A stretch of 64,000 bases of DNA from Zingiber officinale (taxonomy: Eukaryota > Streptophyta > Magnoliopsida > Zingiberales > Zingiberaceae): positions 29,411,891 to 29,475,890 of the forward strand of contig NC_055990.1 of NCBI RefSeq assembly GCF_018446385.1, written 5' to 3'. Of the stretch, positions 4,020 to 34,177 are shown piece after piece; position 1 is the first letter of the stretch, and each line of letters opens with the position of its first letter. Position numbers and translations under genes: made by a program. The notes beneath the pieces were generated by a model. The model did not search any database. It was given only the letters and a program-made list of their open reading frames with translations, and was not told the origin of the DNA.

Positions 4020-6429
4020 TGTTGGTTGCTACTCGGAAAACCTAGAGGTTCCACTGTACAAAAATTTTGTACAAAGGTCTGAACCTTTTCCTAGCTACCA
4101 TGTGTTCTTTTAAATTAAATTTTGGATCGCCTGCGGAACTTAACACGTTTGATCCAAAACTTAATCTATTTGTTCTTTTAGGTTTAGACTTGGATCTCCT
4201 GCGGAACTTAACACGTTCGATCCAAATCACCTTAAGTTATTAATTCCATTAAATATTAATTTCCATAATTGGTTCCCAGTACTGACGTGGCGAGGCACAT
4301 GGCCTTCTTGGATATGGGAGCAACCACCACCGACTAGACAAAACCTTTTATGGAAAGCTAATATTTAATTTCCTAAAATAACTTTAGGTTAACCGAAAGG
4401 AACAATCAAATCACAAGGAAAAAAAATAAAAGAACACAACATCGAAAAACATATTCGAAATACTAGAATCGTAAGCCTCTTGTATTTGGTATTATTTCCA
4501 AAAATAACTAGTATGATGCGGAAAGAAAAAGTACTAGTTATACCTTTTAGAAAGACCTCTTGATCTTCTACCGTATTCCTCTTCTAACCTCGGACGTTGT
4601 GTGGGCAACGATCTTCCAAGATGAGAAACCACCAAACACCTTCTTCTCCTCCTAGCTAGGTTCGGGCAAAACAAGAAAGCTTCACCAAGGAAGAAGAAAA
4701 AAAAACACCAACCAAGCTCCAAGGGATGCAAGCTTTCTCTCCTTCTTCTTCTTCTTCTCCAAGTAGTATCCGGCCACCACAAGAGCTCCAAGGGAGATGA
4801 AGAATTCGGCCACCACAAAGAGGAAGAAAGAAAGAGAGGATGGCCGGCCACAACACCAAGGAAAAGAGGGAGAGAACAATAGAATTTGTCACCCATGAAG
4901 GCACCCCTACCCCTTCTTTTATATTCCTTGGCTTTGGCAAATAAGGAAATTTATTTATAATAAAATTTCCTTAACTTTCTTTGACAACAATTAATTAAGA
5001 AAAATTTAATAAAATTTCTTAATCAATTAATCATGGTTGGCCACCTCAAATAGAAAAATTAGAAGAGTTTCAATCAACAATTAAAACTTTCTTATTTGTC
5101 TTTGGAAATTTTAAAAAATAAAATTTCCCTTTATAATCCCTTCATGGTTGATAAAAAGAAATTTCTATAATTTTAATTTTTCAACATGTGAATAATTTTC
5201 AAAGAGAAAAAATAAAATATCTTTCCAATCTACAAATAAGAAAGAGATCTAATCTCTTTCTTTAATCTTTTGTAGATCCTTTTAAGAGAGATATTTTAAT
5301 TTTAATTCTCTTTAATAAATTATATCTTCCACATAATAAAAATTAAAATTAAAATTCTTTTTAATTTTATTATGGCCGGCCCCCTCTAGCTTGGGTTCAA
5401 GCTAGGGCCGGCCACCCATAAACCAAGCTTAGGCCGACCCTAGCTTGATTCCCAAGCTAGCTTGGCCGGCCCCCTTTAGGTGGGTATAGAAGGTGGGTAT
5501 ATGTGGATATAGTACTTTATAAATAAGAGGCTACGATAGAGACCGAGAGGAGGAATTGGTTTTGGTCTCCCGATAAAATTAAGCATCCCGTGTTCGCCCC
5601 AAACACACAACTTAATTTTATCAATAATAATTCATTCCACTAGAGAACTATTATTGAACTGCCGCACCAATCCCAAATTACATTTTTGGGCTCCTTCTTA
5701 TTATGAGTGTGTTAGTCTCCCTGTGTTTAAGATATCGAATGTCCACTAATTAAGTGAGTTACTGATAACTCATTTAATTAATATCTTAGTCCAAGAGTAG
5801 TACCACTCAACCTTATCGTCATGTCGGACTAAGTCTACCTGCAGGGTTTAACATGACAATCCTTATGAGCTCCTCTTGGGGACATTATCAACCTAGTATC
5901 TCTAGGACACAGTTTCCTTCTATAATCAACAACACACACTATAAGTGATATCATTTCCCAACTTATCGGGCTTATTGATTCATCGAACTAAATCTCACCC
6001 ATTGATAAATTAAAGAAATAAATATCAAATATATGTGCTTGTTATTATATTAGGATTAAGAGCACACACTTCCATAATAACTGAGGTATTTGTTTCTTTA
6101 TAAAGTCAGTATAAGAGAAACAACCTCAAATGGTCCTACTCAATACACTCTAAGTGTACTAGTGTAATTATATAGTCAAGATAAACTAATTCCTAATTAC
6201 ACTACGACCTTCCAATGGTTTGTTTCTTTCCATTTTGATTGTGAGCTGCTGTTTATAATTTATAAGGTACTCATAACATCATCTTCTGTATGTGACACCA
6301 CATACTATGTTATCTACAACATAAATTAATTGAACAACTACAAGCAAATGTAGACAATTTGACCAAATGTGATTCTTTATTCAAAATAAATGTTTGCAAA
6401 AGCTTAGGCTTTCAGTATACATTCCAACA
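4020..6429 (-). repeat. 5' LTR of element D (2.41 kb)
   Basis: It starts TGTTGG and ends CCAACA, and is co-linear with both LTRs of element A (17600-20016 and 24673-27089) and, in reverse, with the LTR of C. The length of 2410 bp is long for a copia LTR. It includes a GAA/CTT-rich stretch (about 4680-4870) that produces spurious open frames, and a GGCCGGCC-rich segment (about 5370-5480). Confidence 0.92.
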
Positions 6430-6795
6430 AAAGTAGGCAGCAGCTAGGGTGGGAGCATACTGAAGACAGTGATGGGAAAGACCATAATAGTTGGAAAATT
6501 AATTTCCAAATTTATTGCTTTTATTTACTGTGATATTTATGTGCATGTGGTGTATGCTAGCATAGGTTAAAACCAACTATTAATTTTATTTGTCATAAAG
6601 TTAGGATGACAATATAATAAAATTAATGGGTTACACCCTCCTCTTACAAATGTTGAATTTGTATACGTCCACACTAATGTAACATGCAATATTCACGGTG
6701 TTTTGAGGTGTTGGTAAATTTAAATAGTATTGTTTGAGGAATCAATATTATTCTAAATTTAGAGTCTTGACCAAAATTTATTTTGTGATTCTTAG
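6430..6795 (+). other. Element C leader remnant
   Basis: Noncoding leader upstream of gag. GCAGCTAGGGTGGGAGCATAC and CCATAATAGTTGGAAAATTAA match the reverse complement of the D and A leaders near their PBS ends. This shows that D is inserted between C's PBS side and C's gag. It carries one copy of the GTATACGTCCACACTA...TTCACGG motif at about 6661-6700. Confidence 0.7.
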
Positions 6796-10777: not shown

Positions 10778-11067
10778 TTGTTGGAGTGTATACTAAAAGC
10801 CTAGCTTTTGTAAACATTTATTTTTGAAATAAAAGAATCACATTGGTCAAATATCTATATTTATTTGTTGAATATAGTTGTTCAATTAATTTATAAAGTA
10901 GATAACATGGTGTGTGGTGTCACACACAGAAGATCATGTGATCAACTCTTTATAAATTATAAACAGTTGCTCACAACTAAGATGGAAATGAACAAACCAT
11001 TGGTATAATCGTAGTGTAATTAGGTATTAGTTTATTTTGACTAATAAATTACACTAGTACACTCTAA

Positions 11068-12557
11068 GGGCATGTTTGGTTCGGGTTATCGCTGATAACC
11101 TTAGTTGGTTATCAACGATAATCTTGTTTGGTTTAAGTAATTCGTGATTCCGGGTAATGCAACATTCCCGCCACATCAGCAATTAGGGAATAGAACCAGG
11201 AATCAAAAAACCTTGGAAACCTTAGGTTTTCTACGATTTCGGGGTTATCAATATTTTTTTCCAAAATTACCCGAAGAGGAAAGCTTTGTTTCCACGCACT
11301 GACGGAGAGCTTGTCATCGACTCCTCCTCCTCCTCTTCCCCTGTTTCTATTATGCTATAAATCCATAACAAGGTCATCTCGTCGGCAACCAGATCGTTAT
11401 CTTCGACCATTTTATCCCGAGGTTGCAGTTTTGGATCAATTGGTAGCTTCCTGTGCTCATGCCTGGGTTTAGAAGAAGTCGGTTGGCATGGCGAGCTACG
11501 TCGAGGATACCGAGCTACGCCTTGGTTTGTCGGGATCCGATGAGCTGGCTACAAGGGGTAGCAAAAGGTCGCTGCCGGAGGATAACGCTGCGGGCGACGA
11601 CTCCAGCTGCGGGCGACGGGTAGGTGTTTGGTGAAATTCTAGGGCTCAAGTGGTTGGTTGGTCGCCGATCCGAACGTACAGGAAGAACAGCTTCCAGGCG
11701 ATGAAGGTGGAGTCAGAGGCTTCTGGGTTGTTCGTGAAGGTTAGCATGGATGGACCTCCTTACTTGAGGAAGATTGATCTCAAGGTTTACAAAGGGTACA
11801 AGGAACTCAGGGAGGGCTTAGACGGCATGTTCAACTGCTTCTCTCAAGGTGAAGAAGCATGATCTAACAGCTATTTCCATAAAAATATGTTCTTTTTTAT
11901 GTTTTGCCACAAATTAGTAATGAAAATTTCTGTTCTTCTATTATTCAGGAGAATTGTCAAGAAAAGAAGGGTGTAATGGATCTGAATTCGCCATAACCGT
12001 CGAAGAGGAGATGAGCAGGGATGTCGATCGCGACATCACTATGCCTTCTCTTCCCTCTAAGCTCTGTACCTGTTCGTTCTTCATGGAGATGGCGCACCAG
12101 CGGCTTGCGGAGGAGGCGACACCGGTGCCGGTTGCTTGCGGAGGAGGCAGCGCTGGTTGCTTGCGGAGGGACCATGCGAGCTTCAGTCCCCGCTCCGCAG
12201 CGAGATCGTGGCCGCTTGCAACGCCTGTGGAGAACGTAGGTGCGGCGTCGGCGGTGGTCGCGGTTGGGCCGATGGATGCGCGTGTGAATGAGGAAGAGAC
12301 TCGTTATTGGAGTTCGGAAACAATGGCAGGGAAGAAGAGAAGTCACGGGAGAGAAGAGATAAAAAAGGTTTTCATTCAATTAACTTAATTCAAAAAGTTA
12401 AAGGGTAAATTAGTAAATGTAAAACTAAGTAATTGCATAATCTTAGTTGAACCAAACACCTAATAAGTTATGTTGTATTCCCCATAACTTTTGTTATGTG
12501 ATTACCTGGTAATCACATAACCAAGGTTATAGATGATGACTTGAACCAAACACACCC
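11068..12557. mobile_element. PIF/Harbinger-type nonautonomous DNA transposon with captured host gene fragment
   Basis: The terminal inverted repeats are GGGCATGTTTGGTTC (11068-11082) and, at the other end, GAACCAAACACACCC (12543-12557); 13 of 15 positions match when one is reversed. They are flanked by TAA at 11065-11067 and 12558-12560. This end sequence and a TAA/TTA target are the hallmark of the PIF/Harbinger (Tourist) superfamily. The flanking DNA is continuous LTR sequence when the element is removed. The 1.49-kb interior encodes no transposase but holds a large Aux/IAA gene segment (see next entry), so it is a Pack-type element mobilised in trans. Confidence 0.9.
11488..12013 (+). pseudogene. 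Captured Aux/IAA auxin-repressor gene fragment
   Basis: Aux/IAA proteins are nuclear auxin co-receptors and repressors. From the ATG at 11488 the frame reads MASYVEDTELRLGLSG, domain I (EAR motif LRLGL). The same frame continues through a TGA (11632-11634) into [17 protein letters not shown], domain II, the degron, with S where GWPPI/V has P. It then reaches [15 protein letters not shown] and [13 protein letters not shown], domain III. A GT..AG intron (11849-11948) is retained and splices in phase to GELSRKEGCNGSEFAITVEEE, the start of domain IV. The rest of domain IV (GDWMLVGDVPW in the family) is absent. The retained intron indicates capture of genomic DNA. The in-frame stop, degron change and missing end argue against a working repressor, though antisense or small-RNA effects are possible. 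Confidence 0.88.
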
Positions 12558-14201
12558 TAAGTGTATTGAGTAGGACCATTTTAGGTAAGTTTTTTTTATA
12601 CTGACTTTATAAAAGAACTAGACCTTAGTTATTATGAAAGTGTGTACTCTTAATCCTAATATAATAACAAGCATATATATTTAGTATCTATTTATTTAAC
12701 TTATCAAATGGTGAGATTTAGTTTGATAAATCAATAGGTTCGATAAGTTGGGAAATGATATTACTTATAGTGTGTGTTGTTAATTATAGAAGGAAACTGT
12801 ATCCTAGTTATCTCGGTTGAGAATGTCCCCAAGAGGAGCTCATAATGATTGTCATGTTAAACCATGCAGGTGGACTTAGTCCGACATGACAATAAAGTTG
12901 AGTGGTACTACTCTTGGAGTTAGATATTAATTAAGTGAGTTGTCAGTAACTTACTTAATTAGTGGGCATTCATTATCTTAAACACAGGGAAACTAACACA
13001 CTCATGATAAGAAGGAGCCCATAAATATAATTTGGGATTGGTGCGGTAGTGTAACAATAACTCTCTAGTGGAATGAGTTATTGTTGATAAACTTGAGTTG
13101 TGTGTTCGGGGCGAACACGGGATACTCAAGCTCATCGAAAGGCTAAAATCAATTTCTCCTCTAGGTCCCTGTCGTAGCCTCATTAAAGTCTCAAGTCCAT
13201 CCAAATAAAATCCCTTCTTGGTGTCCAAGAAAGGAGGTCGGCCCATTGCTTGGTGACCAAGCAATGGCCGACCAGCATCTCCTTAAGAGGGTCGGCCCTC
13301 TTGCTTGGTGACCAAGCAAGTAGGGGTAGGCCATAATAAATTCAAATAGGAGGGGTGTTTTGAATTTTTAAAATCTTCTCTTTGTAGAAAACTATAAGTT
13401 TTAAAAGAAAGATTTTAATTTTTAAAAAAACTTTCCTTATTTGAATTAGGTCACATGATTTAATAGAGAGTTTTAAAAGTTTTAAAACTTTCCTTTTTTA
13501 ACCATCCTCATGGTTTTAGAAAAAAAAAAGGAAGAGAAGTTTTAAAAATTAAAATTTTCTATTTATGTTAAAAAAAGGAAATTTTTGAAGAGAAATTTTA
13601 AATTTTAAAACATGGCTTTAATTTTTAAAACTTCTCTTCCTTTTTAACATCCACTTTAGGAAAGAGAGCTTGTAAGATTTTATAAGAGGATTTCTTCTTG
13701 TAAAATTTTATTAAAAAAAAAATTATTATTCCTTCCTATAAGTGGCCGACCACCCTTGCTTGGTGCCCAAGCAAGGGGTCGGCCAAGATTAAATCAAGAC
13801 AATCATTGATTTGGTAATTGATTCAATCAAGAAGAAAGAAAAAGAAAAATAAAAAGGGAAAAGGAAAAACTAGAGGAAGATTTTAATTTTTGTAAAAATT
13901 CTTTCCTTATTTGCCTTGGACGAGTAATATAAAATAAGGGGTGAGGAGGCCTCACAAGATACAATTCTTATTCTCTTGTTGGTGATCTTTTTGGTGGTCG
14001 GCCCTCTCTCCTTCTCTTCTCCCTTTGCTCTATTTTGCTCCTTGGTGGTGGTGGTCGAATACTAGAAGGAGGAGAAGCACTTTTGAGTGGTGTTCATCTT
14101 GGAGGATCGTCGCCCACACGACGTCCAAGGCGAGGCGAGGAATACGACAGAAGATCTTGAGGTCATTAGCTTACAAAGAAAAGGTATAACTAGTAATTTT
14201 C

Positions 14202-17599: not shown

Positions 17600-20016
17600 T
17601 GTTGGTTGCTACTCGGAAAACCTAGAGGTTCCACTGTACAAAAATTTTGTACAAAGGTCTGAACCTTTTCCTAGCTACCATGTGTTTTTTAAAATTAAAT
17701 TTTGGATCGCCTGCGGAACTTAACACGTTTGATCCAAAACTTAATCTATTCGTTCTTTTAGGTTTTGACTTGGATCTCCTGCGGAACTTAACACGTTCGA
17801 CCCAAATCACCTTAAGTTATTAATTCCATTAAATATTAATTTCCATAATTGGTTCCTAGTACTGACGTGGCGAGGCACACAGCCTTCTTGGATATGGGAG
17901 CAACCACCACCGACTAGACAAAACCTTTTATGGAAAGCTAATATTTAATTTCCTAAAATAACTTTAGGTTAACCGAAAAGAACAATCAAATCATAAGGAT
18001 AAATAAAACAAAAGAACACAACATCGAAAAACATATTCGAAATACTAGAATCGTAAGCCTCTTGTATTTGGTATTATTTCCATAAATAACTAGTATGATG
18101 CGGAAAGGAAAAATTACTAGTTATACCTTCTAGAAAGACCTCTTGATCTTCTACCGTATTCCTCTTTTAACCTCGGACGTTGTGTGGGCAACGATCTTCC
18201 GAGATGAGAAAACACCAACCACCTTCTTCTCCTCCTAGCTAGGTTCGGCCACAATGAGGAAGCTTTACCAAGGATGAAGAACAAAACATCAACCAAGCTC
18301 TAAGAGATGCAAGCTTTCTCTCTTTCTTCTTCTTCTTCTCCAAGTAGTATCCGGCCACCACAAGAGCTCCAAGGGAGATGAAGGATTCGACCACCACAAG
18401 AGGAAGAGAGGGAGAGGATGATGGCCGGCCACAACACCAAGGAAAAGAGGGAGAGAAATAATAGAGGTTGTATCTCATGAAGGCACCCCCACCCCTTCTT
18501 TTATATTCCTTAGCCTTGGTAAATTAGGAAATTTAATTACAATAAAATTTCCTTAATTTCCTTGACATGATTTAATTGAGAAAAATAAAATAAAATTTCC
18601 CAATTAAACTATAATGGCCAACCACATCATGGAGAAATAAATTAGACAAGTTTTAATCAACAAATTAAAACTTCCTAATTTGTCTTTGGAAATTTTAAAA
18701 AATAAAATTTCCCTTTATAATCCCTTCATGGTTGATTAAAAGAAATTTCTATAATTTTAATTTTTCAATATGTGAATAATTTTTAAAGAGAAAATAAAAT
18801 ATTTCTCCGATCTACAAATAAGGAAAGAGATTTAATCTTTTTCTTTAATCTTTTGTAGATCCTTTTCAAGAGAGATATTTTAATTTTAATTCTCTTTAAT
18901 AAATTATATCTTCCACATAATAAAAATTAAAATTAAAATTCTTTTTAATTTAATTATGGCCGACCCCTCTAGCTTGGGTTCAAGCTAGGGCAGGCCACCC
19001 TAAACCATGCTTAGGCCGGCCCTAGCTTGATTCCCAAGCTAGCTTGGCCGGCCCCCTTTAGGTGGGTATAGAAGGTGGGTATAAGTGGGTATAGTACTCT
19101 ATAAATAAGATGCTACGATAGGGACCGAGAGGAGGAATTGGTTTTGGTCTCCCGATAAAATTAAGCATCTCATGTTCGCCCCGAACACACAACTTAATTT
19201 TATCAATAATAATTCATTCCACTAGAGAACTATTATTGAACTACCGCACCAATCCCAAATTACATTTTTGGGCTCCTTCTTATTATGAGTGTATTAGTCT
19301 CCCTGTGTTTAAGATATCGAATGTCCACTAATTAAGTGAGTTACTGACAACTCATTTAATTAATGTCTTAGTCCAAGAGTAGTACCACTCAACCTTATCA
19401 TCATGTCGGACTAAGTCCACCTGCAGGGTTTAACATGACAATCCTTATGAGCTCCTCTTGGGGACATTATCAACCTAGTATCTCTAGGACACAGCTTCCT
19501 TCTATGATCAACAACACACACTATAAGTGATATCATTTCCCAACTTATCGGGCTTATTGATTCATCGAACTAAATCTCACCCTTTGATAAATTATAGAAA
19601 TAAATATCAAATACATGTACTTGTTATTATATTAGGATTAAGAGCACACACTTCTATAATAACTGAGGTCTTTGTTTCTTTATAAAGTCAGTATAAAAGA
19701 AACTACCTCTAATGGTCCTACTCAATACACTCTAAGTGTACTAGTGTAATTATATAGTTAAGATAAACTAATTCCTAATTACACTACGACCTTCCAATGG
19801 TTTGTTCCTTTCCATTTTGGTCGTGAGCTACTGTTTATAATTTATAAGGTACTGATAACATGATCTTCTGTGTGTGTCACCACACACCATGTTATCTACA
19901 ATATAAATTAATTGAGCAACTACATTTATCGTAAATGTAGACATTTGATCAATGTGATTCTTATTTCTAGATAAATGTTTATACCAAAAGCTAGGCTTTT
20001 AGTATACATCCTAACA
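17600..20016 (-). repeat. 3' LTR of element A (2417 bp)
   Basis: It starts TGTTGGTTGC and ends ATCCTAACA. It has the same length as the right LTR, with scattered substitutions (for example, near 17687, 17776 and 17880). The terminal inverted repeat is imperfect (TGTTGG/CTAACA), with one change from the CCAACA of D. Confidence 0.93.
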
Positions 20017-23000
20017 ATCTCCCACTTATACTAAAAGACTAAGCTGCTGTATCTGCTGTCATTCATCTGATTCCCAATCCTTCAACATGTCCATCAAAAG
20101 CTCTTGCCTTAAGGACCTTAGTGAAAGGATCTATAGGTCATCACCTGATGCAATCTAGGCGGCAACAACTTCTCCTCGTTTATACGATTTCTCATATTGG
20201 GTGGTACTTGCGCTCTATTGTGTTTACTTGCCTTATAGACTTTATAGTTTCTTCGAGTTTGCTACTGCACCAATATTATTACAATAAATTGTAATAATCT
20301 TTGGACAAACCAGAAATCATATCTAAGTCTATCTTGAGGTTATTGAGTCATTCAACTTTTATGGCTACCTCAGAGGTTTGCCATATACTCAGCTTCTATG
20401 GTGGAGTCCAGAAAAGCACCTATGCTTATCACTCTTTCATAGTTATGACTTTACCTCCTAAAGTAAACACAAAAACCCTAAGGTTGACTTACTATTGTCC
20501 CTATCCGACTGGAAGTCAAAATCCGTGCAACCCACAGGGACTAAATTAACTGCCTTGTAAGCTAGCATATAATCTCTAGTGCCTCTAAGGTACTTCAATA
20601 TATGCTTTACTGCAGTCCAATGTCCTTGTCCAGGGTTACTTTGATATCTGCTAATTATGCCCTTGGCAAAACAGATTTCTAATCTCGTGCATAGCATACA
20701 TTAGGCTTCCAACAGCCGAAGCATAAAGAACTGTCTTCATTTCCTCTATCTCCTTTGATGTCTACGGAGACATTTCTTTAGATAAAGTTACTCCATGCTA
20801 AAAAGGTAAGAAACCTTTCTTGGAGTGTTGCATGCTTAAAACGAGAAAGGATTTTTTCCGATATATGAAGCTTGAGATAAGTAAAATATTCTTTTCTTGC
20901 GATCCCTTATTACTTTGATCCCAAGAATATATTTATTCTCCCAAGTCCTTCATATCGAATTATTTGGACGACCATACCCTTACTTCTGACAACATTTTGA
21001 TATTGTTTCCGACTACCAAAAATGTTATCTACGTATAGTACAAGAAATACCACCACGTTTCCATCACACCTTTTGTATACACAAGACTTATCCGGTTATT
21101 AAATAAATCCATAGGTCTGGATTACTTTGATAAACCGGATGTTCCAAGACCTTGAAGCTTTGCCTCAATCCATAGACTGATTGAGCTTGCACACAAGATG
21201 CTCTTAGCCTTTTGCAATGAACCCTTCTGGTTGCTTTATATGGATGCTTTCTTCAAGACTTCCATTAAGGAATGTTGTCTTGACATCCACTTGCCAAATA
21301 GATAAAAGAATCCGGATAGACTTTAAGCATGGCTAGCAGTGAAAAAGTTTCCTTTTTCATCTAGCCTTGCTTTTGAAAGTTTCTACCTTCCTATCTATCC
21401 CTCTTTTCCTATTATAGACCTTTTTACACCCAAAGGCTTTTACACCATTTGGTGTTTCTACAAGCTTCCAGATTTTATTAGAATACATATATTCTATTAT
21501 TCATTACTCTTTGCCAAGATGTTGCATCTTTATCTTGGAGTGCTTCGTCATATGTCCGGAGATTAGGTTCATGTCCTCCAGAGATCGAGTCTAAAAAACT
21601 CTCCCAAAACATGAATCCTTTTAGGTTGCCTAACAACCCTCCCACTACGACAAGACACTTTCTGCAATTGTGTATCATTTGTGATACGTGTTGCAGTTTC
21701 CTTGTGGTATCTCATCTTGTACAGTTGGTACTAGATTAGACATGTCTTTTATTATTTCCTTAAGAACAAATTTTCTTATGGGCACAAGGTTTATTACATA
21801 GTCCTTTTCTAAAAATCGGTCATTGATGCTAACAATGACCTTCTGATTTTTAAGACTATAAACCTACTTTCATTTCTCTAGGATAACCCACAAACAAGTG
21901 AATTCCTGTCCAACTTATCATTGTCTCTCTTCTGCATATGTGCTGGACTACCCGAATCCGAATACGCTTCGAAATAGGCTTACGCCTATTCAGCAATTCT
22001 ATATGAGTAGAGAGTTCTGTCTTTGGAAGGTACTATATTCATTTCCGTTTCCAGAGTATATCCTTAAAATAATTTTGGTAATATTCTAAATAACTCATCA
22101 ATCTACTTATTTCCATAAGAGTCCTATACCTTCCTTTTTCTACACCATTCTGTAGGGGTGTACCAGGTGTAGTTAGTTGGGATTGAATCCCTACTTTTGA
22201 TAAGTGACTCCTAAATTCTCCCAAGAGGTACTTGCCACTACCATCTCACCGTAGTGTCTTGATACTTTTACTTTGATGTTTCTCCGCATCAGCCTAGTAC
22301 TCTTTGAACTAATCAAAGCACTTAGTCTTGCGACACATTAAGTAAATGTATTTGTATCTTGAATAATTGTCTATAAAATAGATGAAATATTCAATACTAC
22401 CTCTTGTCTGGATAGTCATAGGATCACACAAATCAGAATTCCAACATATCTTTGGCTCCATACCCCTTAGACTTAAAAGCTTCTTGATTATTTTTCCTTC
22501 CAAGTAAGACTAGCAGGTTAGAAAGATTTCCACTACCAATGAACCCAAAAGTTCATCAGCTACCAATGAATCCTACTCAAGTTAATATAACCTAGCCTTA
22601 GATGTCAAAGATATAATTGGTTCATCTCCGAAGGTTGCTTTCTCTTAAAATTAGAAGATGTGTTACTAATTTCCATTTGTTGCATCGTGGGAGTTATTGG
22701 ATTATAAATTGTCAACCATCATACCAGAATAAATAACTTCCCTATTTTTCTTGATAACAACTTTGTTATCAAAATAGACACAATATCTATTCTATAATAG
22801 TTTAGAAACTGAAATCAGGTTCTTTCTAAACTTAGTATGTAAAGACAATTTCTAATAATCCAAATTTTATTCCTATTAGAGAATAAACCTCTCCCACTGC
22901 AACAGCTGCTACTTTTACAGTAGTGCCCATGTGGACGGTGTTTTTTATTTTCATATAGTTGTCGGGTTTCCTGGAACCCTGCAATGAATTGCAGAATGAT

Positions 23001-24672: not shown

Positions 24673-27089
24673 TGTTGGTTGCTACTCGGAAAACCTAGAG
24701 GTTCCACTGTACAAAAATTTTGTACAAAGGTCTGAACCTTTTCCTAGCTACTATGTGTTCTTTTAAATTAAATTTTGGATCGCCTGCGGAACTTAACACG
24801 TTTGATCCAAAACTTAATCTATTCGTTCTTTTAGGTTTTGACTTGGGTCTCCTGCGGAACTTAACACGTTCAACCCAAATCACCTTAAGTTATTAATTCC
24901 ATTAAATATTAATTTTCATAATTGGTTCCCAGTACTGACGTGGCGAGGCACACGACCTTCTTGGATATGGGAACAACCACCACCGACTAGACAAAACCTT
25001 TTATGGAAAGCTAATATTTAATTTCCTAAAATAACTTTAGGTTAACAGAAAAAAACAATCAAATCACAAGGATAAATAAAACAAAAGAACATAACATCGA
25101 AAAACATATTCAAAATACTAGAATCGTAAGCCTCTTGTATTTGGTATTATTTCCATAAATAACTAGTATGATACGGAAAGGAAAAATTACTAGTTATACC
25201 TTCTAGAAAGACCTCTTGATCTTCTACCGTATTCCTCTTCTAACCTCGGACGTTGTGTGGGCAACGATCTTCCGAGATGAAAAAACACCAACCACCTTCT
25301 TCTCCTCCTAGCTAGGTTCGGCCACAATAAGGAAGCTTTACCAAGGATGAAGAACAAAACATCAACCAAGCTCCAAGAGATGCAAGCTTTCTCTCCTTCT
25401 TCTTCTTCTTCTCCAAGTAGTATCCGGCCACCACAAGAGCTCTAAGGGAGATGAAGGATTCGGCCACCACAAGAGGAAGAGAGGGAGAGGATGATGGCCG
25501 GCCACAACACCAAGGAAAAGAGGGAGAGAAATAATAGAGGTTGTATCTCATGAAGGCACCCCCACCCCTTCTTTTATATTCCTTAGCCTTGGTAAATTAG
25601 AAAATTTAATTACAATAAAATTTCCTTAATTTCCTTGACATGATTTAATTGAGAAAAGTAAAATAAAATTTCCCAATTAAACTATAATGGTCGGTCACAT
25701 CATGGAGAAATAAATTAGACAAGTTTTAATCAACAAATTAAAACTTCCTAATTTGTCTTTGGAAATTTTAAAAAATAAAATTTCTCTTTATAATCCCTTC
25801 ATGGTTGATAAAAAGAAATTTCTATAATTTTAATTTTTTAACATGTGAATAATTTTTAAAGAGAAAATAAAATATTTCTCCAATCTACAAATAAGGAAAG
25901 AGATTTAATCTTTTTCTTTAATCTTTTGTAGATCCTTTTCAAGAGAGATATTTTAATTTTAATTCTCTTTAATAAATTATATCTTCCACATAATAAAAAT
26001 TAAAATTAAAATTCTTTTTAATTTAATTATGGCCGGCCCCTCTAGCTTGGGTTCAAGCTAGGGCCGGCCACCCTAAACCATGCTTAGGCCGACCCTAGCT
26101 TGATTCCCAAGCTAGCTTGGCCGGCCCCCTTTAGATGGGTATAGAAGGTGGGTATAGGTGGGTATAGTACTCTATAAATAAGAGGCTACGATAGGGACCG
26201 AGAGGAGGAATTGATTTTGGTCTCCCGATAAAATTAAGTATCCCATGTTCGCCCCGAACACACAACTTAATTTTATCAATAATAATTCATTCCACTAGAG
26301 AACTATTATTGAACTACCGCACCAATCCCAAATTATATTTTTGGGCTCCTTCTTATTATGAGTGTATTAGTCTCCCTGTGTTTAAGATATCGAATGTCCA
26401 CTAATTAAGTGAGTTACTGACAACTCATTTAATTAATGTCTTAGTCCAAGAGTAGTACCACTCAACCTTATCATCATGTCGGACTAAGTCCACCTGCAGG
26501 GTTTAACATGACAATCCTTATGAGCTCCTCTTGGGGACATTATCAACCTAGTATCTCTAGGACACAGCTTCCTTCTATAATCAACAACACACACTATAAG
26601 TGATATCATTTCCCAACTTATCGGGCTTATTGATTCATCGAACTAAATCTCACCCTTTGATAAATTAAAGAAATAAATATCAAATACATGTGCTTGTTAT
26701 TATATTAGGATTAAGAGCATACACTTCCATAATAACTGAGGTCTTTGTTTCTTTATAAAGTCGGTATAAAAGAAACTACCTCTAATGGTCCTACTCAATA
26801 CACTCTAAGTGTACTAGTGTAATTATATAGTTAAGATAAACTAATTCCTAATTACACTACGACCTTCCAATGGTCTGTTCCTTTCCATTTTGCTCGTGAG
26901 CTACTGTTTATAATTTATAAGGTACTGATAACATGATCTTCTGTGTGTGTCACCACACATCATGTTATCTACAATATAAATTAATTGAGCAACTACATTT
27001 ATCGTAAATATAGACATTTGACCAATGTGATTCTTATTTCTAGATAAATGTTTATACCAAAAGCTAGGCTTTTAGTATACATCCTAACA
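24673..27089 (-). repeat. 5' LTR of element A (2417 bp)
   Basis: Same ends and same length as 17600-20016. The right edge is followed by the second copy of the target duplication TTCTC (27090-27094), after which element B gag resumes. Confidence 0.93.
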
Positions 27090-27094
27090 TTCTC

Positions 27095-27487
27095 CTCTTG
27101 GACGAATGAGTCATTCTCCTTGGGCTCCTCCTCTCCTTGGATTGGTGTAAGACTCTCATGAAGCGCAATTACCTTTTTCCAAAGGTCACTTGCGTTATCG
27201 TATTCACCTACATTCAATATCGCATTAAGAGGTAATAAATTAATTAAAATTTTAGTTACCTCCTTGTCCGTCTCTGATTGCTACCTTTGCTCCTTGGTCC
27301 AATATCGACGTCGGAGACGTTTTCCCTTCTTGTCCGTTGGAGTTTTAAACGGTTCCTTCAATTCAATCCATTGGTCCCAATTCATTTGGAACCACATCTC
27401 CATGCGCTTCCTCCAATAGTCGAAGTCCTCGCGCTCGTATGGAGGTGGGATTCGGATGTCCCATCCGAGAGGTCCCTCCGACTCCAT
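27095..27487 (-). pseudogene. Element B Gag, N-terminal third
   Basis: The start is taken at 27487 (MESEGPLGWDIRIPPP). The copia-type Gag opening YEREDFDYWRKRMEMWFQMN (the "FDYW...RM" pattern of plant Gag) is followed by WTKEQR, an in-frame TAG, then EVTKILINLLPLNAIL and ASDLWKKVIALHESL (the DLWxKL motif). It runs into the element A junction with an acidic stretch (GEEEPKENDSFVQEE). The frame continues at 17599 after removal of A. The defects are the single TAG and the insertion. Confidence 0.82.
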
Positions 27488-29068: not shown

Positions 29069-31018
29069 GTATTATCCCGCTCGATACTATTTGATTGCCG
29101 AGTAAGCATTTTACGGTCACCCGATCGACATTTTCAGGTCGCTCGGTCCCATTTTACGGCCATCCGATCGACATTTTTCCGTGATTCGGTTGACATTCTC
29201 CCGATGCCTCGGTGGGCATCTTCGTAGTCACGCGCTCGACACCGCTCGCCCAATGTCTCCACCTGATCGCCATCCTGTTGATTGCCATGTCAGCACTTTC
29301 TCGGTTGCCCGCTAGGCATCGCTCGCTCAGCTCGACATCCCACGTTTCACTCGGTCGATTATCATTTTACTCGTCGCTCGCTTGACGTTTTTATCGCCTG
29401 CTGGGCGTCTGTCCGGTTATTGACTTGCTATTATTTTTTGTAGTCCGCTCGGCATTGCTACCATCTCTCATGCGACACAATTACTATAGTGATCGCTTGT
29501 GTGGCATTGTTAAGTGGGTTTCAGCGATTTGACTCTGTTATCGAGAGTGATTCAGCCTTTGCGATAGACTGTCCAGTCAGTCAGACTTGCAGTCTCCTTT
29601 GACTAGACTTGAGAGGGAGACTTGTGATACAGATATGTCTGAAGGACCCTTGAGGAATTAGGAGAAAAGAGAGGGACATTTTGGTCATTTCATATTTTGA
29701 GGGTTTTGGTATTAGAAAAGGCACTTTTCATCACAGAAAGGAAGGGGGTTTTTTTTGCTTCGGTCGCCACGAGGAAAGGGGGGTACGAGCTTTTCTTCCG
29801 CCGCCATCCGCTGGGCATTCACGTCGCTGCCTCTGCCTGAGCTCATCGGCACATCGATGAGACATATCCCTCTAGGTCGTTCCAGGTCGACGCCACCGCA
29901 CCGCCTTTGCCTCACGCACGTCAGGCGACCCTGGCGTTAACGCCGCCAACTTCTCCCTCTCGGACTCACGTCGTCGCGAGGTTGGCTCGCGCCGCCAGCA
30001 GCTGCTGCCCTCTGGGCCCTGGAAACCCACACATCGCCACCGGTGCCGCCTCCCCTTCCCCCCTGTACACTGGCAACATTGTCGCCTTCGGCGACCATTG
30101 CTCTCTAGGACATCGCTTCCAACGGCCGCCACCTCCAGCGGTCGTCGGCAGCCAAGCGCCGCCTCCAACTCATCTTTTCCGACGCCCACAGCCGCTTACT
30201 AGTCATCACTTCCTCGTCTACTTCCACCGCTTCCTTCTGGCTTCAGACGCCGCACTGCCTCCTAGACTCCGATTAGCGTTGGACAGATCTCCGATCTACC
30301 CCTCTTCCTCACAGCCCTTGTGGTCAGGCGACGCCGCCCTCCCAGTCGTCCTCACTATAGTTGGCTTTCGACGTAGATATGACATCTGATCCACCGTTGT
30401 GTTTCCGGCCGTCTGTTGTGTTTCCGGCCATCGAATTGCTGTGTTTTGCGCTTCGTACCACTATTATGATTGTGAGCCATTGTTATTAGCCGACCTATGA
30501 GCCGTTATTGTGTGTTGTATTCCGGCCTGCGCATCATTCTCATATTCCGGCCTACGTGCCGATGTTATATCTTGGTTTGCATGCCGTCTTCCAGGTCCAT
30601 ACCTTGTCCGACTCGGCGCAGTCAGATCCAACGCCATGATCAGCTCATCGTCTACCAGAGGGCGCCCCCAGAGGTCAGGATACGTTCTCCATTCTTATTC
30701 TATACGCATTTCACTATTCTACTATGCATTCGGCCCCTTATATATTCGCTGGATCTGCCTCGAGCATCGGGATAGGGGGACCGGGACAACCCGATCACTG
30801 CTGCAGGTGACATTGACCAAAGAACTTTTGACGACTTGATCAACATAGAAGATAGATCACCACCCCTCTTCACTTTGGGTCATAGAGATACAGTCAGTAT
30901 TCCAACCACACCACTAATAATTCCATTTTTACATATTTCTGACAGGATCAGTGGGTATACATCTCCATTAGTTGAGGACACCCAAATCAATTTCACAAGG
31001 AATCGACAGATCAGTTAG
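29069..31018. repeat. GC-rich repeat-like region of unknown origin
   Basis: The first 600 bp is built from loose repeats of CGCTCGACAT/ATCCGATCGACATT-like units; 29640-30400 is GC-rich with chance open frames; 30400-30620 repeats GTTTCCGGCC / TTCCGGCCTGCG / GTGAGCCATTG / ATGAGCCGTTATTG units. I recognise no protein family in any frame. The composition resembles the LTR or untranslated parts of plant Ty3/gypsy elements, but I found no matching second copy, PBS or PPT, so this is only a suggestion. Confidence 0.35.
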
Positions 31019-31825: not shown

Positions 31826-34177
31826 TTATGAGATTTTCCTCGAGTTTGAAGAAAAACCACCTGTTGCCAATTGAGAATATTTATGAACATGTCTTGGACT
31901 CTTGGCCTTAGAAAATATATGTATCACATTACCTCGCTGAAGGCATATGAGCGAGGCATCATGCAACATCTCCCTCGCTTTTCTATCAGGAGTGCAACCA
32001 GCCCTTTCCATCTCACGATAGATAATTGGAACCTGAAGGCATTCCAAGAAGATCAAAGGAACTCAATCAGTAGGTTCATATCTCCTTCCGAACTGTCACA
32101 CAGGAAAATTTCTGGATGAAATCTGAAGTCAAGCAAGAGAAAATTAAAGTTCAAGCAAATTATATGTACTTACCGAAGCGAAAAAAGAGTCAAATTAATG
32201 CATAGTAAAATACTTGGCAAAATCAATGAGACTAAATTTTACTTCCATAATCATTTATTCTACTATGCTCGACTGGATATAATCATAAGAACAAACAGAA
32301 AAGGGGAAAAGAAGCTGACCTCGTCATATTTTCGAGCCCTCATAAATGCTTTCATTAAAGTACAATAAGTAATCACGTCTGGACTAATCCCCTACAGAGA
32401 CAACAATAAGTTTTCCTGTTAATTGTAATGTAATACAAATGGAAAAATAACTAAAAAGAGGGAGTACTAGAAGATCACATAAGTAATTTGATATGGTTCG
32501 GCAAAGTACTTACACTCTCCTTGATGTGTTCAAAAACCGTTGTTGCTTCCAAATGCTTTCCAGCAATACTAAATGCATTCATCAACAGATTCAACATTAT
32601 AAGGTTTGGTTCAGTTCCATCATCTTCCATTAGCTGAAGAACTTTCAAAGTTTGTTCACAAAGCCCCTAATCAACAATGTAAGAATACAAATAATCAATT
32701 AGTTGAAGAATCTTGACAGTTATTTCTTAAAAGAGAATGATCCTAAACTCAAAATAATAGAAGCCATCTCAATTAATACAAGCAAGCACATGAATGACCA
32801 AAATAATCAATTCCTATGAAATAAAAGTGTACAAAGACAAATGTAGGAATGTATGTATGCATATAACCAAGCATAGTAAAGGTTCAAAAGATCATACAGA
32901 TGAAAGAAAGATCAAGTATTAACCACACGGATAGACTAACAATTTTTTTTCATGCAAACTGACAATTTTAAACAAAGGATAGACGGTCCTTGTACCTGCT
33001 GCGCATATGCATTTGCTAATACACAAAAAAGGCTAGCAGACATTTGTATGCCTTTAACTTTAAGTGCAGCGACACACTCCTCAGCATTTTGAAACATACC
33101 ATACTGGCCATATATATCGACCAAAACTGAATATATTATGCCACTTTCTGTCATTCCTCTATATTTCATACCCTTGAACAAGTTTTTTATGTCATCCCAT
33201 CTTCCCTGTTCTCCTAAACGACTAATGATAGTGAGAAATATCTTAGGATCAGGGTATAAACCTTGCTCTTGCATTTCAGTAAAGAATCCAAGGGCACGTT
33301 CCAAGTCACCAGCCCTGCAATGCCACCTAATCAGCATGTTCCAAGTTGTGATGTCTGGCTTTAGTCCTTCACTGCGCATTTTGTCAAACACCTTGACTGC
33401 TTCATCCAATTGATCATACTTTCCGAAGGTATCGATCATATCATTGTACATTCTCACGTCAGGCACAATGCCAAGCTCACGCATCTCCATTACCAGCTCC
33501 ATAGCTTTCTTCCACATGCCATTGTCCCGATAAAGCTTAATGATTTTGCTATACACAAAGGAATCCAGTCGAATTCGCTTTGCCTTCATCTCTCCGAGAA
33601 CCCACCAGGTGTCCTCCAGACGACCAGAATTGACATAGGAATCCAAGAGGATGAAGTAGGTCTGTCGATTCCACTCCACGCCCTCCTTGCTCATCTCAAC
33701 AAGCACGCGATCGGCCATCAAAAGCTGACCTTTCCGCAAAAATCCGCCGAGGAGCGCGTTGTAGTCCCTCGAAGTGGGCCGGATGCCCGACCACTTCATC
33801 TCCCGGAAGACCGAGTCCGCCTCGAGTGTCCTCCCGGTGCGGCCCAGCGCGAAGACGAGCCGGCCGTAGGACGCGGCGCTCGGGCGCATCCCTGCCGCCT
33901 CCATCCGGCTCAGAAGGTGCAAGGACCGGTCAAGGCGGCCCTTTGAGCAGTGGGAATGGATCAGACCGTCGTAGTCTTCGCGAGAAAGCTCTCTTTTCTC
34001 GCGTTCTCGAGCGGCTTCATCGTCCAGTAGGACTTTTGAGGCCAAAGTCCAGTTTTTGGGTGGGATCTCCGTAAGTCTGAGGTGGTTGCGGAATTCCTTC
34101 GAGGAGGAGACAAAGCTGCGAGGGGAGGGCTTAGGAGGCGAAGGCTTGAGGGAAAATTCGACGAGCGCCGCGGTCAT
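31826..34177 (-). CDS. P-class pentatricopeptide repeat protein, CRP1-like (four coding exons)
   Basis: PPR proteins bind organelle RNA one nucleotide per repeat and control its processing or translation. Coding exons on the minus strand are 34177-32996, 32666-32514, 32391-32320 and 32032-31826, all with GT..AG introns in phase 0, giving 537 residues. The first roughly 60 residues are Ser/Pro/Lys-rich without repeats (an organelle-targeting type of N-terminus), followed by about 11-12 tandem 35-residue repeats (for example, MYNDMIDTFGKYDQLDEAVK and TWNMLIRWHCRAGDLERAL). The C-terminus has the CTPDRKAREML motif. The order DTFGKY, HCRAGD, RLGEQGRW, LVDIYGQYG and CTPDRKAR resembles chloroplast CRP1 and its relatives, but it is shorter than CRP1 and the match is from memory. 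The last exon may be cut earlier: CAGCGAG|GTAATG (about 31925) looks like a further donor. GC content falls from the first to the last exon. Confidence 0.88.

What the first reader, a model, noticed from the sequence alone, without database searches (positions are those of the whole stretch)
11068..12557. A Pack-type PIF/Harbinger element carrying three domains of an Aux/IAA auxin repressor
Seen: matched 15-bp ends with TAA duplications, and inside them an in-frame run of Aux/IAA domain I (TELRLGL), the domain II degron (GWSPIR in place of GWPPIR), domain III ([15 protein letters not shown]), plus a retained, phase-correct intron leading into domain IV. Known: Pack-MULEs and some CACTA/Helitron elements capture genes; PIF/Harbinger captures of this extent are less commonly described. 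Inference: genomic capture, then C-to-T style decay (both Pro-to-Ser changes are CCN to TCN). A transcript could give small RNAs against Aux/IAA genes or a degron-altered peptide.
Basis: partly seen in the sequence, partly recalled or inferred. Interest (0 to 1): 0.78.

Follow-up and report, generated by a model that had tools for sequence, protein, structure and literature searches.

The report
Jumping gene carrying auxin-repressor piece
In ginger, a small cut-and-paste jumping gene copied part of an auxin-response repressor gene and spread it to at least four places, where the copies are decaying although databases list some of them as real genes.

Summary
In detail: 11068-12557 is a non-autonomous PIF/Harbinger (Tourist-like) element with 15-bp terminal repeats (13/15) and TAA duplications, inside a retrotransposon LTR whose three relatives in the window lack it. 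It carries part of an Aux/IAA gene (Pfam 2.6e-25). The genome is the haplotype-resolved ginger assembly. Donor homology (alleles on C10 and C9) covers only 11290 to about 12006. Four copies share these junctions, indicating one capture followed by transposition; the C14 copy has an allelic empty site. Correction: in the window copy a deletion removed the intron-1 splice donor, TGA 11632-11634 separates domains I and II, and domain IV is cut before its acidic motif. Decay is methylation-like: 52 of 67 C-to-T/G-to-A changes lie at CG/CHG sites, P=5e-9; purifying selection was not detected. The first degron proline is altered in 3 of 4 copies. Members with similar ends carry PPR, protease-like and LRR fragments. 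Pack-PIF elements are already described (PMC8903248): a well-documented new member of a known kind.

The parts
11065..11067 (.). target-site duplication TAA, left copy
   Evidence: empty sites in three related LTRs
12558..12560 (.). target-site duplication TAA, right copy
11068..11082 (+). 5' terminal inverted repeat, 15 bp
   Evidence: 13 of 15 with the 3' end
12543..12557 (-). 3' terminal inverted repeat, 15 bp
11068..11296 (+). transposon backbone, 5' part; shared with LRR-carrying members L027 and L028 up to element base 229 and 227, and with other members up to about base 205
11290..12006 (+). segment captured from an Aux/IAA gene (donor alleles L012 and L013); overlap with backbone 5 to 7 bp (TTCCACG) at the 5' junction, about 3 bp at the 3' junction
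11290..11487 (+). captured leader of the gene with a TATA-like CTATAAAT at 11355-11362
11488..11610 (+). exon 1 remnant: ATG and domain I TELRLGL; P15S at 11530-11532
11611..11642 (+). deletion scar and residual 3' part of intron 1; splice donor GTAAGT lost; in-frame TGA at 11632-11634
11643..11848 (+). exon 2: degron GWSPIR at 11656-11673 (donor GWPPIR; C-to-T at 11662) and domain III
11849..11948 (+). retained intron 2, GT...AG, 100 bp
11949..12006 (+). first part of exon 3 / domain IV, cut before the acidic motif
12004..12557 (+). 3' module of the transposon; shared throughout with PPR-carrying members L014 and L015, in two pieces (12004-12087 and 12292-12557) with L022-L025, and from 12166 with protease-carrying members
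12484..12530 (.). subterminal palindrome, arms 91 percent complementary
10779..13181 (+). LTR that holds the insertion (limits approximate), downstream of frames with integrase and RVT_2 domains; copia-type by RVT_2 and domain order (classification recalled)

Best explanation
A non-autonomous PIF/Harbinger element (a Pack-PIF) acquired a 0.8-kb genomic stretch of one ginger Aux/IAA gene: about 195 bp of leader, the ATG, exon 1, intron 1, exon 2, intron 2 and the start of exon 3. The chimera was then copied to at least four sites, of which the window is one. Shown: ends, duplications, empty sites, donor alleles, shared junctions, four copies, members with other cargo. Inferred: the piece replaced the middle of an element whose 3' part was already in the family; acquisition by template switching during repair synthesis, guided by short microhomologies; mobilisation by a PIF transposase encoded elsewhere; silencing by methylation. 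The cargo decays: the C4 and C14 copies have stops, the window copy lost a splice donor, and mutations are concentrated at CG/CHG sites. The most likely present role of the window copy is none beyond being a silenced element annotated as a gene.
For: TSD and empty sites; Aux/IAA identity; donor pair with homology confined to element bases 223-939; same junctions in 4 of 4 copies, each with its own matching TTA or TAA duplication; members with similar ends but PPR, protease-like and LRR cargo; 52 of 67 C-to-T/G-to-A changes at CG/CHG against 168 of 396 sites, P=4.8e-9; 30 nonsynonymous of 52 coding changes against 34.4 plus or minus 3.3 expected without selection, P=0.12; stops in the C4 and C14 copies; P0072 and P0052 equal frames of the window and C12 copies letter for letter.
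Against: No autonomous partner with these ends was recognised among the 30 transposase loci held, of 156 matches reported, with about 1.5 kb of flank. No methylation, transcript or small-RNA data. The selection test is weak (52 changes, 4 copies) and leans, not significantly, towards fewer nonsynonymous changes than expected. The C12 copy keeps a full open frame. The window insertion has no allelic empty site read.
Confidence: 0.88

Rival explanations
1. The capture happened by fusion of two neighbouring insertions: two elements flanked the Aux/IAA segment and the outer ends were used as one transposon (the model preferred in PMC8903248), rather than by template switching.
For: Gisby and Catoni describe this for Pack-PIF and other superfamilies (PMC8903248, section 9 read). 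The 5' part of the element is closest in extent to LRR carriers and the 3' part to PPR carriers, as expected if two different members flanked the gene. Degenerate end-like repeats lie inside the element at 11125-11148 (71 percent to 11073-11096) and 12447-12468 (82 percent to 12541-12562).
Against: Those inner repeats lie in the backbone shared with members that carry other cargo (element 1-205 and 1233-1490), not at the cargo junctions. The 5' junction overlaps by 5 to 7 bp and the 3' by about 3 bp, which fits template switching. BLAST with the element found only the captured segment in the 8 kb held around each donor allele.
Confidence: 0.35
2. The family makes small RNAs or antisense transcripts that regulate the donor Aux/IAA gene.
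For: The captured segments are 95.4 to 97.0 percent identical to donor allele C10. The mutation pattern suggests methylation, which in plants is often RNA-directed (recalled).
Against: No small-RNA data here. The donor frames are open through the part of domain IV tested. Apart from the terminal repeats (46-nt arms, 74 percent complementary) one search found no long inverted repeat around the cargo.
Confidence: 0.12
3. The C12 sister copy is a working gene: a spliced protein with the domain I motif, an auxin-insensitive degron (GWSPIR, the kind of change in axr2-1 P87S) and a transposon-encoded tail, acting as a stable repressor.
For: P0052, a named database protein, equals the spliced C12 frame exactly. 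Mimicking P87S abolishes IAA7 binding to TIR1 (PMC7210949, passages). Pro58 is invariant in 26 of 26 proteins aligned (chosen by me from the 120 listed).
Against: The PB1 region is cut before YEDKDGD, so ARF binding is doubtful (inference). Purifying selection was not detected over the four copies. C12 also has E6K, P15S, Q69H, L80M, S85G, M86I, G112D and E132K. Structure prediction was uninformative because its control failed.
Confidence: 0.05
4. An ordinary Aux/IAA pseudogene beside which MITE ends happen to lie.
For: The window copy alone could look like this; matches to the terminal repeat alone are only modestly above chance.
Against: Four copies with the same junctions and matching duplications, three LTR empty sites, one allelic empty site.
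Confidence: 0.01

Closest known systems
Pack-PIF elements of maize and rice (Gisby and Catoni 2022, PMC8903248; passages and sections 9 and 10 read)
   Same: PIF ends (15 nt in the worked example), TTA/TAA duplications in most, gene fragment inside, several copies, members with different or nested captures
   Different: The worked maize example (cluster 18) carries 163 bp and in some members a further 58 bp of genes; here about 0.7-0.8 kb with leader, start codon, three exons (the third cut) and two introns, donor alleles identified, and an empty site on the other haplotype for one copy
Pack-MULEs of rice and Pack-CACTA of Arabidopsis (as cited in PMC8903248; details recalled)
   Same: Capture of genic DNA inside cut-and-paste ends, later amplification
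   Different: Other superfamilies with other ends and duplications
Pack-TIRs of animals, gap filling and FoSTeST models (PMC8277862, passages read)
   Same: Microhomology at breakpoints; multicopy elements amplified by transposition
   Different: Animals; mechanism there inferred from population and outgroup data not available here
Aux/IAA degron alleles axr2-1 (P87S) and bdl (P74S) (PMC7210949, passages)
   Same: Pro-to-Ser in the degron core
   Different: Here in a truncated, mobile, decaying copy, not in an intact gene

Membership tests
Pack-PIF (non-autonomous PIF/Harbinger with captured gene) | Terminal inverted repeats of about 15 bp of PIF/Tourist type | tested here: met
   13 of 15; similar ends on family members. 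That the sequence is PIF/Tourist-like is recalled; no repeat library was searched
Pack-PIF (non-autonomous PIF/Harbinger with captured gene) | 3-bp TTA/TAA target duplication | tested here: met
   TAA in the window; TTA or TAA matching on both sides in 15 of 19 members listed, 4 of 4 Aux/IAA copies; in the other 4 (L018, L021, L023, L027) one end was missing or not clean
Pack-PIF (non-autonomous PIF/Harbinger with captured gene) | Fragment of a host gene with a separate donor locus | tested here: met
   Donor alleles L012 (C10) and L013 (C9)
Pack-PIF (non-autonomous PIF/Harbinger with captured gene) | No transposase inside | tested here: met
   Four frames of the element scanned with Pfam: AUX_IAA in one, nothing in two, a sub-threshold Pro_racemase match (0.21) in the fourth; these include its two frames of 120 residues or more
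Pack-PIF (non-autonomous PIF/Harbinger with captured gene) | An autonomous PIF element with the same ends exists in the genome | tested here: inconclusive
Functional Aux/IAA gene | Domains I to IV in one open spliced frame | tested here: not met
   Stop TGA 11632-11634, lost splice donor, domain IV truncated
Functional Aux/IAA gene | Degron GWPP core | tested here: not met
   GWSPIR in the window; donor GWPPIR
Functional Aux/IAA gene | Transcribed and spliced | not testable with these tools
   no RNA data

The most novel reading that the evidence does not exclude
Methylation-driven C-to-T decay of a mobile Aux/IAA copy turns the CCG CCG degron codons into auxin-insensitive forms (GWS in two copies, GWL in a third). 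At least one such copy (C12) keeps an open spliced frame and acts in clonal, heterozygous ginger as a dominant or partly dominant brake on auxin response.
Probability: 0.04. Interest if true: 0.8.

Novelty: new member of a known kind. Interest (0 to 1): 0.42.

Why it matters
It gives an unusually full case history of gene capture by a PIF/Harbinger transposon: donor alleles, capture junctions, four insertions, empty sites, decay pattern, and related elements with at least three other cargoes. It also shows that ginger protein entries named as auxin-responsive or auxin-induced (P0052, P0072; P0074 in part) are transposon copies, which matters for gene-family counts.

Tried and rejected
Looked for Aux/IAA relatives in prokaryote genome contigs: none confirmed. 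Rfam: no match in the window. Allele of the window insertion: C6 carries the neighbouring PPR gene at 98 percent, but with the 40 kb of C6 held the only match over 300 bp above 94 percent starts at window base 30364, so no empty site could be read. Left flank of the C12 copy: its bases 1-753 are repetitive and no allele was recognised. Right flank of C12, left flank of the C4 copy, the PPR cargo and the segment 12004-12292 as queries did not complete, so donors of the other cargoes and further empty sites are open. Autonomous partner: L064 has a family-like end beside it, but that end faces away from the transposase and seems to belong to a neighbouring element. Structure prediction of the C12 chimera (mean pLDDT 54.6) and of the donor as control (45.2) were both poor; because the control failed nothing is concluded. 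No auxin-response motif (TGTCTC, TGTCGG) lies in the captured leader, nor in the donor upstream stretches counted. Dropped: enrichment of mutations in the degron. From the mean CG/CHG transition rate is 52 in 168 x 4 site-copies, about 7.7 percent; the six bases of CCGCCG in four copies would be hit about 1.9 times and 3 were seen, so no enrichment is claimed. The P15S and P58S changes shared by the window and C12 copies may be one event: these two copies also share G-to-T and A-to-G changes elsewhere, but the tree signal is weak (6 sites against 4 and 2).

Full report
Identity of the source. The window lies in a 3.09-Gb assembly at C5:29411891-29475890. The best matches to the cargo protein are ginger (Zingiber officinale) proteins. 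Contig lengths listed for eight ginger hits (P0052, P0054, P0056, P0057, P0060, P0074, P0084, P0112) equal those of C12, C9, C3, C15, C1, C14, C16 and C6 exactly; those for P0053 and P0072 differ slightly from C10 and C5. The chromosome range of 88.69 to 194.39 Mb and total of 3.1 Gb given in PMC8342452 (passages read) match C22, C2 and the total. That assembly holds both haplotypes as 11 chromosome pairs.

The element. 11068-12557 has ends that agree at 13 of 15 bases, flanked by TAA on both sides. It interrupts an LTR that follows frames with integrase and RVT_2 domains, so a copia-type element (classification recalled). Three related LTRs in the window (6430-5527, 20034-19109, 27095-26182, minus strand) pass through the site without it: they read ACACTTAGAGTG where the filled site reads ACACTCTAA-element-TAAGTG. 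The naming as PIF/Harbinger or Tourist-like rests on the ends, the TTA/TAA duplications and memory; no repeat library was searched.

The cargo. The frame 11635-11859 matches Pfam AUX_IAA at 2.6e-25 and three solved Aux/IAA chains at 1.4e-12 to 2.5e-12. A genome search with the element (40 of 3154 candidates scored, so counts are lower bounds) found the same cargo in four elements (window; C4:104497045-104498826; C14:38980571-38982209; C12:17889275-17890885) and in two loci where only element bases 223-939 match, C10:5952199-5952999 and C9:6304507-6305307. These two are the donor alleles. The spliced C10 frame equals P0053 over the 153 residues tested, and the C9 frame equals residues 51-202 of P0054; both run on into YEDKDGD.

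Junctions. On the 5' side the captured sequence starts at TTCCACG (11290-11296); the LRR-carrying members share the backbone up to that word, 7 bp of it in L027 and 5 in L028. On the 3' side the donor matches contiguously to 11997 and, after three mismatches, again over CGAAGA to 12006; PPR carriers match from 12004. All four copies have the same junctions, so one capture is the simplest reading. Each has its own matching duplication: TAA, TTA, TAA, TTA. For C14 the other haplotype (C13) has the intact empty site, CCTCTAATAGTC, against CCTCTAA-element-TAATAGTC. In one search the cargo was found on one number of each presumed chromosome pair for the four insertions, which suggests that all are hemizygous; only C14 was shown directly. 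Pairing by number was checked for C5/C6, C9/C10 and C13/C14 only.

State of the four frames. C12: full open spliced frame, equal to P0052 letter for letter. C14: stop at codon 69. C4: a deletion in exon 1 that shifts the spliced frame (it reads 70 residues), a stop at codon 103, and a nested second MITE. Window: deletion of the end of exon 1 and most of intron 1 with its GTAAGT; from the ATG it reads 48 residues and stops. The gene model P0072 (ZIOFF_017703) starts at an internal ATG at 11701, uses intron 2 and runs into the transposon tail; it equals that window frame exactly. P0074 is a model of a copy on a contig with the length of C14; it agrees with the C14 copy except at its end.

Decay. 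Counting sites where both donor alleles agree and no gap is present, and leaving out the last columns at the 3' junction, the four copies differ from the donor at 91 site-copies; 67 are C-to-T or G-to-A. Of these 52 fall at CG or CHG sites, which make up 168 of 396 C/G sites (P=4.8e-9); counting each distinct change once, 44 of 56 (P=3.8e-8). This is the mark expected of methylated, silenced DNA (inference; no methylation data). Coding changes: 30 nonsynonymous of 52; a simulation with the same spectrum gives 34.4 plus or minus 3.3, P(30 or fewer)=0.12, so purifying selection was not detected but a weak effect is not excluded. Two of the window's seven listed changes (R42G, Y137D) lie at rearranged junctions and are probably not point mutations. 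Donor Pro58, invariant in the 26 proteins, is Ser in the window and C12 copies, Leu in C4 and unchanged in C14. Mimicking the Pro-to-Ser mutant of IAA7 (axr2-1, P87S) abolishes TIR1 binding (PMC7210949, passages). That P87 is the first Pro of GWPP is recalled.

The family. Of 20 stretches fetched, 3 are Aux/IAA copies and 2 are donors. The other 15 share ends or modules with the element. Six (L014, L015, L022-L025) share one cargo by DNA; it is a PPR piece by Pfam in the one frame of it that matched, L015, E=9.9e-54, while a different frame of L022 gave no family. Four (L016, L017, L019, L020) share an antisense piece with a TAXi_N match in L016 (5.5e-08; aspartic-protease-like, recalled). Two (L027, L028) carry an antisense LRR N-terminal piece (1.4e-10, 2.9e-10). 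L026 has unidentified cargo (the one frame tested gave no family), and in L018 and L021 the 5' end was not found. Donors of these other cargoes were not located. The 3' module 12004-12557 is shared with L014 and L015 throughout, in two pieces with L022-L025, and from 12166 with protease carriers, so the Aux/IAA piece seems to have replaced an earlier middle (inference).

Comparison with what is known. Pack-TYPE elements, including Pack-PIF with mostly TTA/TAA duplications, were described for maize and rice in PMC8903248 (passages; sections 9 and 10). A library search for Pack-PIF found that paper only. A search joining Aux/IAA, Harbinger and gene capture found none, and one for an Aux/IAA family study in ginger found none. 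Other papers on transduplication appeared in listings only and were not read, save PMC8277862 in passages; most subscription journals are not covered. The element is therefore a new member of a known kind, with a longer captured piece than the worked example there (163 bp plus 58 bp).

Mechanism. Shown: capture of genomic DNA, shared junctions, spread, haplotype polymorphism of one copy, decay. Inferred: template switching at microhomologies during repair (as in PMC8277862, passages), or fusion of two neighbouring insertions (PMC8903248); degenerate end-like repeats inside the backbone keep the second open. The evidence leans to the first without deciding. PIF-type transposases are common in the genome, but the partner element was not found.

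Noticed in passing
L009:1704-1920 (C4:104497203-104497419): A second, shorter Tourist-like MITE with its own GGGGGCGTTTGGT/ACCAAACGCACCC ends and TTA on both sides is nested in the C4 copy.
   Followed up: partly
11125-11148 and 12447-12468: Degenerate copies of the element's own ends lie about 50 bp and 95 bp inside it, in the backbone; possibly traces of older nested insertions.
   Followed up: no
L014, L015, L022-L025: Six members with similar ends share a captured PPR gene fragment; L014 and L015 reach 1.8-1.9 kb.
   Followed up: partly
L016, L017, L019, L020 and L027, L028: Other members carry antisense fragments of an aspartic-protease-like gene and of an LRR protein gene.
   Followed up: partly
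window 1-30364 against C6:21370000-21409999: The two haplotypes match around the PPR gene (32936-34174), but to its left no match over 300 bp above 94 percent was found in the stretch of C6 held.
   Followed up: partly
window 5527-6430, 19109-20034, 26182-27095: Three more minus-strand copies of the LTR that holds the element.
   Followed up: no
P0052, P0072, P0074: Database protein models of ginger that are copies of this transposon (P0074 in part); P0052 is named auxin-induced protein 22D-like.
   Followed up: yes
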